Shown: positions 35,862 to 63,065 of the stretch, piece after piece
Numbering within the stretch: position 1 is the stretch's first letter
How the letters are laid out: each line of letters begins with the position of its first letter
Assembly: GCF_000517085.1 (NCBI RefSeq)
Contig: NZ_KI912107.1
Location: 5,391,980 to 5,455,979, forward strand
DNA: 64,000 nt
Direction: 5' to 3'
From: Saccharicrinis fermentans DSM 9555 = JCM 21142
Lineage (GTDB): Bacteria > Bacteroidota > Bacteroidia > Bacteroidales > Marinilabiliaceae
Notes under the pieces: generated by a model
What the model saw: only the letters and a program-made list of their open reading frames with translations
Told to the model about the DNA's origin: nothing
The model's database searches: none
Program-made: the position numbers and the translations under genes

Positions 35862-35882
35862 TGAAATGAGTCATGGGAATTA

Positions 35883-35911
35883 TTTCGTACACAGAAGTAT
35901 AATTACTTTTG
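35883..35911 (+). promoter_or_regulatory. Candidate promoter of the cysteine-rich lipoprotein
   Basis: TACTTTTG at 35904-35911 matches TAnnTTTG exactly. TTTCG at 35883-35887 stands near the -33 position but is imperfect. The start codon is 40 bases downstream of the box. Confidence 0.5.
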
Positions 35912-35951
35912 GTGAGTTCCAGATGGCCATTGATAAATAAATTATAAGTAT

Positions 35952-36338
35952 ATGAAAAAAATGTTTTTATTGCCCATTGCTTTGGGGATGGTATTATCAT
36001 TCATTACCTGGGGCTGTGAAGATGAAGAAGAAGATGCTTTTTGTGAAGCATTTACTTCCCCTGAATGCTCGGAATTAAGCTTTAATGCTTGTAGTGATGA
36101 GAATGGGGATTACTATGAGAATGGAGATGTAAAATATTACTGTTCTGAATATTATGAGGATGGTGATGAGGATGAGTGTGATGGTGCAGCGGATCAGCTT
36201 ATTTTAGATTCAGGATGCGTAAGTTCTTCAGAAAGTAGTGCTTCCTTGAAGTCTGCTACGCTGTCTTATAAGTCATTCGTATTGAGTGCTATGGCAGAGG
36301 TGAGAACACAGGCTAAGTTTGCAGCAGGCTGTAACTAA
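35952..36338 (+). CDS. Small acidic cysteine-rich lipoprotein, unknown function
   Basis: A 128-residue precursor with a signal peptide and lipobox (TWGC, Cys22), so it is a lipoprotein. The mature part opens with a strongly acidic patch (EDEEEDAF) and has seven further cysteines (DAFC, PEC, NAC, YYC, DEC, SGC, AGC), enough for three disulphides plus one free thiol. A DENGDYYENGDVKYYC segment resembles short calcium-binding or YD-type loops. The C-terminal part is a serine/alanine-rich helix. I do not recognise a family. It has its own promoter box and terminator and follows the DsbA-like gene. Confidence 0.72.
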   Translation: MKKMFLLPIALGMVLSFITWGCEDEEEDAFCEAFTSPECSELSFNACSDENGDYYENGDVKYYCSEYYEDGDEDECDGAADQLILDSGCVSSSESSASLKSATLSYKSFVLSAMAEVRTQAKFAAGCN

Positions 36339-40853: not shown

Positions 40854-42062
40854 TCACTCGTGGTTAAAATTTATTTTGTCACTGGGTATTTTATAGAGTA
40901 TAATGCGTTCATATCGTCCAACTATCATTGTTTTTCCAACAATAACCAGTCCACCATCATTGGCTTGAAAGAAACTGGCTATTTCTACGGGATTTGTATG
41001 GCCCAGATATAGGGTATGTTTCAGTTCGTAGTTGAGTGCGTCAAAAAAGTACAATGCCAATTGATTGCTGTTTGTTGTGGCGGCATAGATCAATATTTCT
41101 TGTTCGTTGATTGCTTCGCGTATGATTCTTACGTTCGATTTTGTTGATAATTCAGGATAGGCCTCGTCTTCTAATTGGCTTACGTTCTGAATGCCATCTA
41201 TATCGATTGAGCTTTTCGTGGCCAGGGCTATTTCACCAACATTAAATTTAGATTTGGCGATGGCAAAGGTTCCATCATTATTCATAGCAAAAGCTCCAAT
41301 ACCACCTTGTTCTTGATATCCGTTTACCCTACCGCTGATTATTGGGGTGTTATGCTGAACGAAAAGTAAGGATAATGTATAATTAGAGAAGGCATTAATG
41401 CCATAGTAGTTTATGCCACTATAATTGAAAGAATGTATAAAAAAGGGAAAGGGAGCCCGTTGTTTTTTTAGATGTTGGAATATGTCATATGAAAAGTCTT
41501 TATTTGTGGGAGTGCTAAGCTGAAAGGATATATTTAAAGATGTGTCATACCCAGTGATCACAGTGTTGTATGCTATTCCGTCGTAGGATGCGATGATAAG
41601 AGAGTTGGTTTCTGGTGAATAATGAGCGGCAAGTGGATAGTTGACCTGCATGCTGCCAATCATTGTTATAGCTCCGCTTTCGGCGTTGATCTCCATCATT
41701 TGGGCGGTAAAAGAATGGTCGTCCATACAAACAAAGCGTATTTTCCCGTCAATATTCATTAATTCGGAGACTGGACTAATATAGGTGGGATCCACATTTG
41801 TTTCCCATACCATGTTTCCGTTTTTATCTGTTTTCATCACGTGAATGGTGGGGTAACTGGTATACTGAGAATCATTGATGGCAGATAGAATAAGGATACT
41901 ACCATTGGTAGATTCAATGGCATCAACTGGGTAGTAGGACCTGCTTACATCCTTGTCGTCATATACCTTTACAAAATGGTAATCGGGGTTGATATCACTG
42001 TCTTTAATGTCGCAAGCTGTCGTTACAAGTACAAGTAAAGCAATGCTTATTATTGTTTTCAT
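40854..42062 (-). CDS. Lipoprotein of unknown function, possibly beta-propeller
   Basis: A 402-residue precursor with signal peptide and lipobox (TTAC, Cys17). The mature protein has repeated blade-like segments (GSILILSAIND, HVMKTDKNGNMVWETN, GGLVIVGKTMIVGRYERIILYKI) reminiscent of PQQ- or kelch-type propellers. I do not recognise a specific family. The start codon is 24 bases from the stop codon of the IS110 transposase, so the original upstream region has been separated from the gene by the insertion. Whether it is still expressed is unknown. Confidence 0.65.
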   Translation of the reverse strand: MKTIISIALLVLVTTACDIKDSDINPDYHFVKVYDDKDVSRSYYPVDAIESTNGSILILSAINDSQYTSYPTIHVMKTDKNGNMVWETNVDPTYISPVSELMNIDGKIRFVCMDDHSFTAQMMEINAESGAITMIGSMQVNYPLAAHYSPETNSLIIASYDGIAYNTVITGYDTSLNISFQLSTPTNKDFSYDIFQHLKKQRAPFPFFIHSFNYSGINYYGINAFSNYTLSLLFVQHNTPIISGRVNGYQEQGGIGAFAMNNDGTFAIAKSKFNVGEIALATKSSIDIDGIQNVSQLEDEAYPELSTKSNVRIIREAINEQEILIYAATTNSNQLALYFFDALNYELKHTLYLGHTNPVEIASFFQANDGGLVIVGKTMIVGRYERIILYKIPSDKINFNHE

Positions 42063-42085
42063 ATACTCTAATTAATTACAAATTT

Positions 42086-43099
42086 TTAAGCCACTATTTC
42101 AGTGGAGCTATTAATATTTTTCTCTCTCGGGTCAAGACATATGTAATCTTGACTGTAAGGCGTTTTATTTTTTACAACGCTATAAATTGTTCTCAACATT
42201 TTATTTGACACATTATTCATAATTAAATAATGAGGTTTGCCCTCTAACTTTTTCTTTTCGTAATACAGCCTATATTCTTTATTGTGCTTGACAGCAGACT
42301 TAGCACCCATATAAAGGAGAGCCTTTAATTTTCGATCTCCAAACGGGCTTATTTTTGCTTTGCCGACCATCTTTCCTGACGCATTGGGGAAAGGGCAAAT
42401 CCCCACATATGAAGATGCCTTTCGAGCGGTGTCAATCACAAGAAAGTTCCCTGTTTTAATAATCAAATCCGTGGCTATAACAGGCCCTATTCCTTTTACG
42501 CTGACAACTAGTTCATAATTGTCGTTCAGTTCATTGTTTGCCGTTATTATAGCTTCTATTTCACTTTCTACTTCTTCTATCTCTTTGTTTAAATTGAATA
42601 TAGCTTTATCTGCATATTTATGTGCACTTACGCTTTGTATGGGCACATTGGAACGACCGTGCTCTCCTGTTCTTAAAACCTTTCTTGCCTTCACTAATTG
42701 AGAACGCAGTGTATACAAACTTTTCAATTCAACTATCTCTTCTGAATCGTACTGCTTGTATTTTAACTTATCAAAGAATCGCTCTCCATATTCTCGTATT
42801 CTAGCGGCATCTATATCATCAGACTTTCCCTTTATCATACCTAGGCTATGCTTTATGGTATAACCCGGTATCAAGGCTATATCTATTCCTAACTGGTTGC
42901 ATAAATAAACCAATAAGTCTCCATAGGAACCTGTATGCTCAACACACAATACGGCATCTTCTGATACGTTCTCTAAGAACTTTGATATGGCACTTAGTCT
43001 GTTCTTCACTTGTTTCTTCTTTTCTTTTCCATTCTTGTCAATAAAGTTTACATCAAACTTTTCCATTGATAAATCAATTCCATATACTTGCATAAACAT
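42086..43099 (-). CDS. IS110-family transposase (RuvC-like DEDD recombinase)
   Basis: A 337-residue intact recombinase. The RuvC-like domain has Asp9 (YGIDLS), Glu54 (CVEHTGSYG), Asp94 and Asp97 (KSDDIDAARI). A coiled-coil segment (about residues 165-190) follows, then a helix-hairpin-helix (VVSVKGIGPVIATDLI). The C-terminal Tnp domain has the conserved serine Ser241 in PFPNASGKMVG. All expected catalytic residues are present, so the gene is probably active. Family knowledge: in characterised members such as IS621 the protein works with an RNA guide from the element's non-coding end; the upstream location of the RNA here fits the IS110 group rather than the IS1111 group. Confidence 0.93.
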   Translation of the reverse strand: MFMQVYGIDLSMEKFDVNFIDKNGKEKKKQVKNRLSAISKFLENVSEDAVLCVEHTGSYGDLLVYLCNQLGIDIALIPGYTIKHSLGMIKGKSDDIDAARIREYGERFFDKLKYKQYDSEEIVELKSLYTLRSQLVKARKVLRTGEHGRSNVPIQSVSAHKYADKAIFNLNKEIEEVESEIEAIITANNELNDNYELVVSVKGIGPVIATDLIIKTGNFLVIDTARKASSYVGICPFPNASGKMVGKAKISPFGDRKLKALLYMGAKSAVKHNKEYRLYYEKKKLEGKPHYLIMNNVSNKMLRTIYSVVKNKTPYSQDYICLDPREKNINSSTEIVA

Positions 43100-43115
43100 T
43101 TTGTTTTATGCTCCG

Positions 43116-43244
43116 TATTGAGTGGCTAACATCGTGATAGTGGGTTCTGCCCTAAATACTCTCTGGCTTTTACTCAATAATCTGCTGTTCTTAATATGAA
43201 ACTTAGATTCAATCTATCTGTTTAATAAAGTTAACGCAGCAGAT
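43116..43244 (-). ncRNA. Putative IS110 bridge RNA (two tandem stem-loops)
   Basis: Two adjacent hairpins of almost equal size lie upstream of the transposase. One is closed by ATCTGCTG (43180-43187) and CAGCAGAT (43237-43244) with 49 bases between. The other is closed by TATTGAGT (43116-43123) and ACTCAATA (43172-43179) with 48 bases between. They abut exactly (43179/43180). Both stems are perfect 8-bp matches. Two successive loops of about 50 bases match the target-binding and donor-binding loop layout of known bridge RNAs. The assignment is inference from position and fold. The RNA may extend further upstream. Confidence 0.6.
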
Positions 43245-43324
43245 GGAGCTTTTTAACCAATATAAGGGTATTATTTCTTATTCATTTCTAATAATATTTT
43301 ACGTACCACAAACTAACGATATGT

Positions 43325-44197
43325 TTATCTTCTTCTTTTTTCTCTTTGTTGCTTAAAGTAGTTACACTCTACCTCAGATCGTTTGGTGATTTTACTAATG
43401 GGGAATATCACAGAAAGATTGATTTTTAAGGTATGTAGATTCAGGTCATCTTGCACATCATAAGAGCTGCCCACAAACAAATCATTTGCATAGCGATTTT
43501 TTTCATTGGTTACATTATTGATGTTGATATTGTATGAAGCACCAAGCATGAGTATGATCTGGTTTAAATCGTATGATATACCGGTGCCAAATCCTAATTT
43601 GAATTGGCTGGTAATATAACTATCACTATAGTCAGACTTTAAGGATGTGCGCTGCACGGTGGAAGAAGAACTACCGTTGATTCGAATGAAATTCGTATTA
43701 GCCGTTTTGTCGGCAGTATGCATCATCCCATAAGTAACGATGCCTTCTACATAAGGTTTGAAGTTCGCAGTGCCCACATAATATCGAATGGATAAAGGAA
43801 TTTCAAAGTAACGGAGTTTCTGGGTATGATCTGTTTCTTTATTCAGAGTGGCACCCGTTTCTTCGTTCCAGCTTTGTTCACCATTGTAGGAGTATTGATA
43901 GGTGTTATATGAGGGAAGCAAACCTAGGTGCAAATTGCCGAAAGCAGGATAAAACATGGCAAAGCCGAATTGATGTCCCATATTACTGAGCGAACTGCTG
44001 TAATCTTTAGGAGCAATAGACGCAGTAGGACCTAAGTGATTCGTCACGCTAAAGGTATTTAATACCGATGGTTGCGTAAAATTAACGCCTCCGTAAAAGC
44101 CAACCAGCCATGTAGGTTTGTTTTTATCTCCTCTTGCTGCATAAGCAAAATGGAAAAAACCAACTGCCAGCGTCATGAGTAGCAAGTGTTTTTTCAT
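43325..44197 (-). CDS. Outer membrane beta-barrel protein (PorT-like)
   Basis: I chose the ATG at 44197 (MKKHLLLMTLAVGFFHFAYA), which begins at the signal peptide; upstream in-frame starts (44215, 44278) would add an unlikely leader. The mature protein of about 270 residues has the features of a small barrel: LVGFYGGVNFTQ, MGHQFGFAMFYP, RYFEIPLSIRYYVG, KPYVEGIVTYG, KLGFGTGISYDL, ILMLGASYNI. The RYFEIPLSIRY pattern is typical of PorT/OmpW-type barrels in Bacteroidota. The end (KQQREKRRR) is basic. The specific function is unknown. It is divergent from apbE; the IS110 element follows its stop codon. Confidence 0.72.
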   Translation of the reverse strand: MKKHLLLMTLAVGFFHFAYAARGDKNKPTWLVGFYGGVNFTQPSVLNTFSVTNHLGPTASIAPKDYSSSLSNMGHQFGFAMFYPAFGNLHLGLLPSYNTYQYSYNGEQSWNEETGATLNKETDHTQKLRYFEIPLSIRYYVGTANFKPYVEGIVTYGMMHTADKTANTNFIRINGSSSSTVQRTSLKSDYSDSYITSQFKLGFGTGISYDLNQIILMLGASYNININNVTNEKNRYANDLFVGSSYDVQDDLNLHTLKINLSVIFPISKITKRSEVECNYFKQQREKRRR

Positions 44198-44311
44198 TGT
44201 GTTGTGCGTATTCATATAGTCAAAAACGAAGAAGATCTTCACATAGTGTGTGATGATCAATAAAAAATATTTTTGCACTGTGAATTTTTTATTCGTGCCT
44301 AGATGTATTTA

Positions 44312-62465: not shown

Positions 62466-62984
62466 TTATCTTAGATTCAGGAGTTGATAAAAACCTTCGT
62501 CTACGTACTCCCTTCCTACTTTTCTCCATTTTTTTCTTATTCCTGTTAATTCGAATCCTTTTTTTTCGAATAGATGGATGCTTTTTTGGTTATTTACTAA
62601 TATTGAGCAATATAATTGTTGTATACCCAGCGTATTAAAGCAATAGTCAATAAATAAATCGAGCGCAGCAGACGCATAGCCGTAGCCCTCGTACTTTTTA
62701 TGAACCATAATTCCTACGCCGGCCCTATTGTGGTAGGGATCAAAGTCAAATAAGTCAATAATGCCAATGGGACTAGGTTGTTCACCTTCGCTTTCAATCA
62801 ATAGTTTAAGTTCCTTGGATTGATATATATCCAAATTAATTCCTTGGATGTACTGTTTGAGCTGTTGCTTTGAGAAGGGCTTTAAGGTTTCTGAATATAT
62901 CCATAAAGCCATGTCGTTTTCCCATTTGTACAAGATGTCTACATCTTCAGGTTCTAAAGCCCTCAGCGCCACCTCTTTTTTCAT
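62466..62984 (-). CDS. GNAT-family N-acetyltransferase (RimJ/RimL type)
   Basis: A 172-residue protein. It begins LRALEPEDVDILYKWEND; the acetyl-CoA site is VGIMVHKKYEGYGYASAALDLFIDYCF; the last motif is LYCSILVNNQKSIHLFEKKGFELTGIRKKW. It resembles SpeG/RimL-type enzymes. The substrate (amine, peptide N-terminus) cannot be deduced. It converges with the HsdR_N gene and follows the PD40/SPOR gene on the same strand after 81 bases. Confidence 0.88.
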   Translation of the reverse strand: MKKEVALRALEPEDVDILYKWENDMALWIYSETLKPFSKQQLKQYIQGINLDIYQSKELKLLIESEGEQPSPIGIIDLFDFDPYHNRAGVGIMVHKKYEGYGYASAALDLFIDYCFNTLGIQQLYCSILVNNQKSIHLFEKKGFELTGIRKKWRKVGREYVDEGFYQLLNLR

Positions 62985-63065
62985 GTGTTTATATTTTTCT
63001 TTTAAAGGCCATATGGAACTCCCTGCAATGAATCATTTCCCTGGCTCGTTTTTCGTATTTTCTTT

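What the first reader, a model, noticed from the sequence alone, without database searches (positions are those of the whole stretch)
43116..43244. Probable IS110 bridge RNA: two adjoining ~64-base stem-loops upstream of an intact transposase
Both hairpins are closed by perfect 8-bp stems (ATCTGCTG/CAGCAGAT and TATTGAGT/ACTCAATA), have loops of 49 and 48 bases, and abut without a gap. This is the layout expected for the two guide loops of a bridge RNA. The transposase retains Asp9, Glu54, Asp94, Asp97 and Ser241, so the system may be functional. The guide specificities would be new.
Basis: partly seen in the sequence, partly recalled or inferred. Interest (0 to 1): 0.72.

Follow-up and report, generated by a model that had tools for sequence, protein, structure and literature searches.

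The report
Jumping-gene guide RNA targeting start codons
A small mobile DNA element in a Bacteroidota genome carries a two-looped guide RNA whose loops match its own ends and its landing sites, and all six copies in this genome sit exactly at the start codon of a gene without destroying that codon.

Summary
They are the two loops of an IS110-group bridge RNA on the minus strand, upstream of a transposase with its catalytic residues (42086-43099). Six near-identical copies in the genome fix the ends and an AT core: element 42063-43320. The 43180-43244 loop is the target loop (TATTAAACAG-AT, GTTTC-AT); 43116-43179 is the donor loop (AGAGTAT, CTA-TC-ACGAT). In 22 related RNAs 10 of 33 pairs show changes on both sides, one of them in an outer stem closing both loops. 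Target loops fit their own elements' flanks better than others' (0 of 20,000 permutations on either side). A congeneric genome has the two neighbouring genes without the element. The unusual part is the target: in this genome 6 of 6 insertions sit at the AT of an ATGAAA start codon, same strand, codon kept; in relatives 7 of 21, so it belongs to some lineages' guides. The same site is used by an undescribed ~90-bp repeat, found in 49 of 71 genomes of the host family. Known kind; surprising target and repeat.

The parts
42063..43320 (-). IS110-group insertion sequence, 1258 bp counting one copy of the AT core
   Evidence: Six copies of 99.6-100% identity in the own genome end at the same bases
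43319..43320 (-). AT core at the left end (left junction AAACAT|AT|CGTTAGTTTG)
   Evidence: Comparison of six copies and relatives
42061..42062 (-). AT core at the right end, which is also the AT of the start codon of the next gene (AGAGTAT|AT|GAAA)
43110..43249 (-). Predicted bridge RNA: outer stem GCTCC/GGAGC (43245-43249 with 43110-43114) enclosing the two loops in a three-way junction
   Evidence: RNAalifold on 22 relatives; one outer pair goes C-G to U-A in 5 of 22 rows, the other four do not vary
43180..43244 (-).
   Evidence: Loop is variable between relatives and follows each element's own flanks
43216..43227 (-). Left target guide TATTAAACAG-AT
   Evidence: Matches left flanks of the six copies; mean 6.5 of 8 positions
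43196..43202 (-). Right target guide GTTTC-AT (pairs with AT-GAAAC)
   Evidence: Right flanks of the six copies are AT-GAAA with C next in 2 of 6 and A in 4 of 6
43204..43216 (-). Apical hairpin TAGAT-TGA-ATCTA between the two target guides
   Evidence: One of its pairs goes A-U to G-C in 8 of 22 rows
43116..43179 (-).
   Evidence: Conserved loop in 22 relatives, as the element ends are
43155..43162 (-). Left donor guide AGAGTAT-T
   Evidence: Same letters as the right element end AGAGTAT, which six copies fix; first core base mismatched
43131..43140 (-). Right donor guide CTA-TC-ACGAT, pairing with AT-CGT-TAG with TC bulged out
   Evidence: Complementary to the left element end; a two-nucleotide flip-out is described for IS621
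42086..43099 (-). DEDD transposase gene; in several relatives the frame starts at the second ATG (M3)
   Evidence: Pfam DEDD_Tnp_IS110 and Transposase_20; IS621 and ISCro4 among solved chains; residues present
40854..42062 (-). Host gene whose start codon is the target (402 aa; no Pfam family)
   Evidence: Ortholog 58% identical over 397 aa in a congeneric genome, without the element
43325..44278 (-). Upstream host gene, same strand, ending 4 bases before the left core
   Evidence: 62% identical ortholog next to the same downstream gene in L199

Best explanation
[quoted passage not shown] The element is expected to leave as a circle, whose joined ends (AGAGTAT-AT-CGTTAG) are held by the donor loop while the target loop pairs with AAACAK-AT-GAAA(C) in the chromosome; the DEDD/Ser recombinase then exchanges strands at the AT core. 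Because the right target guide reads AT-GAAA and the left guide reads the A+T-rich leader, the element lands between a gene's leader and its start codon, on the gene's strand, and keeps the ATG. It thus places its RNA and transposase genes directly upstream of a host gene, in the window between two genes of one strand, with the transposase stop codon 23 bases before the host start codon. Shown from sequence: ends, core, guides, covariation, site choice, a related locus without the element. Inferred: RNA expression, circle, junction promoter (TTG-N20-TTAGTTTG across the joined ends), catalysis and the benefit of the site.
For: Six copies with identical ends. Guide-flank agreement: left 8 nt, own mean 6.92 against 3.42 for other elements, 24 loops, 32 sites, 0 of 20,000 permutations; right 5 nt, 4.32 against 2.92, 18 loops, 24 sites, 0 of 20,000; with one loop per cluster, 6.88 against 3.05 (13 loops, 0 of 20,000) and 4.40 against 2.73 (10 loops, 1 of 20,000); the left test takes the better of two registers for own and other flanks alike. 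Right donor guide: ACGAT in 17 of 18 rows and the further TA in 17 of 18. Left donor guide: AGAGTAT in 18 of 18, but the right ends of the relatives were located by that motif, so only the own element, whose end six copies fix, is an independent test. Structure: 98.5% of cells paired, 10 pairs with changes on both sides, covariation 0.197 against 0.105 shuffled and at most 0.050 when slid. Own genome 6 of 6 insertions at the ATG of an ORF of 243 aa or more. Related locus without the element in G047. Motif AAACAKATGAAA occurs 103 times in the genome against 5 for its reversal; of the first 30, 18 start an ORF of 60 aa or more and 7 start a repeat unit, against 9 of 78 ATGAAA in the window that start such an ORF.
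Against: No RNA-seq, no circle and no activity seen. Rfam has no match, and the single-sequence fold is only z -1.88. One of the five measures goes the other way: further standard pair types 15 against 19.2 in shuffles (500 of 500 shuffles as high). The core of the left donor guide reads TT in 12, TA in 5 and AT in 1 of 18 rows, so it mismatches the AT core in 17. L030 fails the right guide (1 of 5); L031, L033 and L059 reach 5 of 8 on the left, and the loop of L078 and L084 a mean of 5.5. The right donor guide of L052 lacks ACGAT and that of L028 lacks the TA. Start-codon placement holds for only 7 of 21 related insertions with a known right flank, so it belongs to the guides of some lineages, not to the family. 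Two of the six target ORFs have no Pfam family. The related locus in G047 shows the gene pair without the element, but its leader has diverged and does not carry the AAACAK target.
Confidence: 0.93

Rival explanations
1. The hairpins are chance or a simple regulatory structure of the transposase leader and do not guide insertion.
For: Single 8-bp hairpins with such loops are common in the window (17); single-sequence z only -1.88.
Against: Loop segments follow element flanks across relatives, and changes on both sides of pairs occur in stems.
Confidence: 0.02
2. The insertions sit at start codons because the element recognises the ~90-bp repeat or its boundary, not start codons as such, as IS621 does with REP sequences (recalled).
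For: 24 of the first 30 AAACAKATGAAA sites lie at the 3' end of a repeat. Repeat found at the left flank of L004 (own), L028 and L035, and weakly of L011.
Against: Of the six own copies one (L004) has a clear repeat at its left flank and one (L002) a weak 3' piece; the other four gave no hit. Related elements insert at ATGAAA without a clear repeat at the left flank (L029, no hit; L036, E 0.32 only).
Confidence: 0.35
3. Start-codon placement is chance or survivorship: insertions elsewhere were lost because they broke genes.
For: In relatives 14 of 21 insertions are not at start codons, so the system can go elsewhere.
Against: In the own genome all six sites are variants of one context, TAAACAK-AT-GAAA, which the guides spell.
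Confidence: 0.05

Closest known systems
IS621 (IS110 group), bridge RNA of Durrant et al. 2024, PMC11208160, and Hiraizumi et al. 2024, PMC11208158
   Same: Long left end holds a two-loop RNA, target loop first and less conserved, donor loop second and more conserved; in each loop the left guide pairs with the bottom strand and the right guide with the top strand, core included; two flipped-out bases in the right donor guide; DEDD plus Ser recombinase.
   Different: Core AT, not CT; both loops closed by one outer stem with no linker, and no separate 5' stem-loop in the 22 bases modelled before it (the rest of the left end was not folded); target is a gene start codon; the joined ends resemble a Bacteroidota and not a sigma-70 promoter (inference).
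ISCro4 transposase (PDB 9t56)
   Same: Best solved relative of the transposase by sequence, E 1.8e-14 over residues 5-316.
   Different: Distant in sequence; bridge RNA not compared here.
seekRNA of IS1111/IS110 elements (Siddiquee et al. 2024, PMC11187229)
   Same: RNA from the noncoding region, upstream of tnp in IS110 members, determines the target (passages).
   Different: The word 'Bacteroid...' does not occur in the text, and the one 'start codon' there concerns the curation of transposases.
Related elements in Olivibacter, Parapedobacter, Pedobacter, Albibacterium, Saccharicrinis, Flagellimonas and others (L028-L057)
   Same: Same RNA architecture and conserved donor loop in the 22 aligned.
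   Different: Other target guides; Flagellimonas-type members lack the two bulged bases of the right donor guide and those with a known right flank do not target start codons.

Membership tests
IS110 family transposase | DEDD RuvC-like domain and Transposase_20 domain with catalytic Ser | tested here: met
   Pfam PF01548 E 1.1e-17 and PF02371 E 2.6e-18; D9, E54, D94, D97, S241; IS621 chain E 6.9e-14
IS110 group (against IS1111) | Long noncoding end upstream of the transposase, short right end | tested here: met
   221 bases from left core to ORF (43100-43320), 23 bases after the stop codon (42063-42085)
Bridge RNA | Two internal-loop hairpins, conserved structure in relatives | tested here: met
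Bridge RNA | First loop complementary to both sides of the target, covarying with it | tested here: met
   0 of 20,000 permutations on either side
Bridge RNA | Second loop complementary to the element's own ends | tested here: met
   AGAGTAT, and ACGAT plus TA after a 2-nt bulge, against ends fixed by six copies; one core base mismatched
Bridge RNA | RNA is transcribed and binds the recombinase | not testable with these tools
   No expression or binding data
IS110 transposition | Site-specific insertion at a shared core without target duplication | tested here: met
   Six own copies share core AT and show no duplication; L031 in Olivibacter shows a 14-bp duplication, an exception
IS110 transposition | Circular intermediate whose junction forms a promoter | tested here: inconclusive
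   Joined ends would give TTG-N20-TTAGTTTG (N19 in L029) in 12 of 18 rows and not in the 6 Flagellimonas-type rows (the spacers printed are one short because its script left off the last base of the right end), near TTTG/TAnnTTTG (passages of PMC7366714); circle not observed as DNA or RNA

The most novel reading that the evidence does not exclude
A whole site-specific mobile economy in this bacterial family is built on start codons. The IS110 element and an unrelated, high-copy ~90-bp non-autonomous repeat insert at the same AT of AAACAN-AT-GAAA, on the gene's strand and keeping the ATG, with newer repeat copies stacking nearest the gene. The repeat would be moved in trans by an IS110-type recombinase through target-loop to target-loop synapsis, since its junctions are themselves target sites.
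Probability: 0.1. Interest if true: 0.88.

Novelty: new member of a known kind. Interest (0 to 1): 0.55.

Why it matters
It gives a natural set of bridge RNAs (22 distinct RNAs aligned, 24 loops with flanks) in which guide rules, the AT core and a two-base bulge can be read against IS621. It also shows an RNA-guided insertion sequence whose guides spell the translation-start context of its host, a way to enter genes without breaking them. If the repeat family that shares the site is mobile, it would reshape 5' leaders of many genes in a bacterial family. In the searches (open-access full texts only; listings, with passages of four papers) I saw no report of start-codon targeting by IS110 or of the repeat.

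Tried and rejected
Rfam over the window and over three repeat loci: no match. Relatives in viral contigs: none confirmed. Plasmid records: 399 with a match, all below 60% identity, not used further. Sweeps for the conserved donor loop GCCAGAGAGTATWWMGGG: 5 of 295 genomes of the order, 1 of 395 of the phylum (the own genome), 12 of 12 genomes already known to hold a relative, 5 of 251 around the Parapedobacter genome; they added few new elements. Idea that the repeat is a structured RNA: not supported, only 3 weak pairs in the consensus fold. Idea that the repeat is moved by this element's donor guides: rejected, the repeat's left end GAAACGAGCC does not fit the right donor guide, and the repeat occurs in 49 of 71 family genomes while a close element (68% or more, E up to 1e-30) occurs in 4 of 71. 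Idea that another IS110 of the family carries guides for the repeat ends: nine loci scanned with four short motifs, no convincing set. Idea that the repeat's flanking ATGAAA is a target duplication: not supported, L179 and L188 have ATGAAT at the gene and TGAAAC at the left end of the unit. Rows dropped from the count of 21 right flanks: L035, L041, L046, L047, L051 (contig ends within a few bases of the element), L038, L049, L056, L057, L059, L078, L084 (no right end found by the script), L058 (no ends found), L060 (RNA not found by the script), L053 (not examined), and L010, L012, L063, L082, L083 (the same places as other rows). In one search the right flanks of L042-L045 were misplaced by the script inside the transposase gene; I use the flanks for them.

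Full report
Observation. In the 64-kb window there are 17 perfect 8-bp hairpins with loops of 44-52 bases but only this abutting pair; ten triplet-block shuffles gave none. The neighbouring ORF 42086-43099 is on the minus strand and is an IS110 transposase by Pfam; the two solved chains that match it are ISCro4 (9t56) and IS621 (8wt6). The residues D9, E54, D94, D97 and S241 are there.

Ends and core. The window lies in a 5.98-Mb genome that holds six copies of the element, 99.6-100% identical, plus two scraps. Their flanks differ and their ends agree: left junction ...AAACAT or ACAG and the like|AT|CGTTAGTTTG, right junction ...AGAGTAT|AT|GAAA.... The core is AT and the element spans 42063-43320. 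The only other match to the IS110 domain in the genome is a diverged ORF of 307 aa.

Guides. Read on the minus strand, the first loop (43180-43244) contains TATTAAACAG-AT, an apical hairpin, and GTTTC-AT. [quoted passage not shown] passages of PMC11208160) this spells TATTAAACAG-AT-GAAAC, and the six sites are variants of TAAACAK-AT-GAAA. The second loop (43116-43179) contains AGAGTAT, the element's right end, and CTA-TC-ACGAT, the complement of its left end AT-CGT-TAG with two bases bulged; two flipped-out bases are described in the right donor guide of IS621 (passages of PMC11208158).

Relatives. One scan of the genome collection gave 30 loci in Bacteroidota at 54-90% amino-acid identity. 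I aligned 22 distinct RNAs. The target loop varies and the donor loop is nearly constant. Matching each loop to its own and to other elements' flanks gave, on the left, 6.92 of 8 against 3.42 (24 loops, 32 sites) and, on the right, 4.32 of 5 against 2.92 (18 loops, 24 sites), neither reached in 20,000 permutations. With one loop per cluster the figures are 6.88 against 3.05 and 4.40 against 2.73 (0 and 1 of 20,000). Misses: L030 on the right (1 of 5); L031, L033 and L059 on the left (5 of 8 each) and the loop of L078 and L084 (mean 5.5). Donor side, 18 rows: AGAGTAT in 18 (the relatives' right ends were found by that motif, so this is not independent), ACGAT in 17, the further TA in 17, and a core of TT, TA or AT in 12, 5 and 1.

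Structure. RNAalifold on the 22 RNAs finds an outer stem GCTCC/GGAGC that encloses the two loop stems, giving a three-way junction without linker. Ten of 33 pairs have both-side changes, 44 cells against 12.2 in shuffles; sliding the partners destroys pairing (98.5% to 31-48%); further pair types are fewer than in shuffles, 15 against 19.2. One outer pair changes C-G to U-A in five rows, the target-loop stem changes at four pairs, and one pair of the apical hairpin between the target guides goes A-U to G-C in eight rows. Shuffles do not remove relatedness, so these are supporting numbers and not probabilities.

Target. In the own genome 6 of 6 insertions lie at the AT of an ATG AAA that opens an ORF of 243 aa or more on the same strand: two with glycosyl hydrolase family 43 domains, a LytTR response regulator, a DUF5627 protein and two without Pfam family. 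The ATG is regenerated. In the window the element separates two genes of one strand; in a congeneric genome their orthologs (62% and 58% identical, L199) lie 27 bases apart without the element, though the leader there has diverged and lacks the AAACAK target. Of 21 related insertions with a known right flank, 7 are at start codons (L011, L028, L029, L031, L036, L050, L054) and 14 are not, so start-codon targeting follows from the guides of some lineages. Several of the 14 are near-duplicates (the Flagellimonas type).

The same site and a repeat. AAACAKATGAAA occurs 103 times in the genome and 5 times reversed. Of the first 30 along the chromosome, 18 open an ORF of 60 aa or more, 7 open a repeat unit, and 24 lie at the 3' end of a ~90-bp repeat. 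The repeat begins ATGAAACGAGCC and ends AAACAT, or a variant such as AATCAT or AGACAC, directly before the gene's ATG. I collected 78 distinct copies in the loci held, a biased sample; 8 of the 55 matches listed are 100% identical over 96 bases. In tandem pairs the copy nearest the gene scores higher against the repeat profile in 14 of 16. A sequence model finds it in 49 of 71 genomes of the host family, counts per genome being lower bounds because only 60 candidates per genome were scored. In 29 loci from 29 other genomes of the family, 24 of 34 copies abut an ATG that opens an ORF of 60 aa or more, or one cut by the contig end, and 4 abut another unit. It has no Rfam match in the three loci searched and no conserved fold. 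Its mover is unknown. The IS110 element and the repeat share a target, not ends, and the element is too rare (a close relative in 4 of 71 genomes) to be the general mover.

Mechanism. Shown: element ends, AT core, guide-flank and guide-end complementarity, conserved fold, site choice, a related locus without the element. Inferred: transcription of the RNA, circle formation, a promoter at the joined ends (TTG-N20-TTAGTTTG in the own element, near the TTTG/TAnnTTTG consensus quoted in PMC7366714), recombination by the DEDD/Ser enzyme, and the advantage of landing at a start codon: the element sits next to an expressed gene and leaves the coding sequence whole.

Literature. I saw: PMC11208160, outline, sections 6 and 12, and passages; PMC11208158, passages; PMC11187229, passages; PMC7366714, passages; the other papers as search listings only. 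'Start codon' has 0 occurrences in the held text of PMC11208160. Searches for start-codon targeting by IS110 or for the repeat showed none; the library lacks most subscription papers and holds no bioRxiv preprints, and ISfinder was not available.

Verdict. The bridge RNA is a new member of a known kind, with a target class that I have not seen described.

Noticed in passing
window 35862-35954 (+) and about 62980-63044 (-); L085-L114, L131-L160 (own genome); L169-L197 (29 other genomes of the family): Undescribed ~90-bp repeat, ATGAAACGAGCC...AAACAT, that abuts gene start codons (ATGAAA) on the gene's strand; 49 of 71 family genomes, in tandem pairs the gene-proximal copy scores higher in 14 of 16, no conserved RNA fold. 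Many units open a short ORF such as MKRAMRVISHTGE. Mover unknown.
   Followed up: partly
L008 (G000:C3:1610566-1610593) and L115, L116, L117, L124, L127: Right-end-like sequence ATTAGAGTATATGAAA without the rest of the element, mostly before gene starts; several are repeat copies whose last bases are AGAGTAT instead of AAACAT.
   Followed up: partly
L173, left flank of the repeat unit: In G052 a repeat unit follows AAATTAGAGTAT-AT, the element's right-end sequence, as if stacked onto an element, its relic or a repeat copy with that end.
   Followed up: no
L031 / L083 (Olivibacter sitiensis): Insertion with a 14-bp duplication of the gene start on both sides (ATGAAAAAACTGAT), unlike the clean junctions of the six own copies.
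   Followed up: no
L032 (Cerina litoralis): Left core CT and right core AT; the left target guide also reads CT, so target and donor cores seem to differ.
   Followed up: no
L041-L049, L052 (Flagellimonas, Allomuricauda and relatives): Group with contiguous right donor guide (no bulge) in the six rows checked, inserted after GGAAACGGA or near it, with recurring flanks such as GGTTTATGCCGT, possibly one repeated target family.
   Followed up: no
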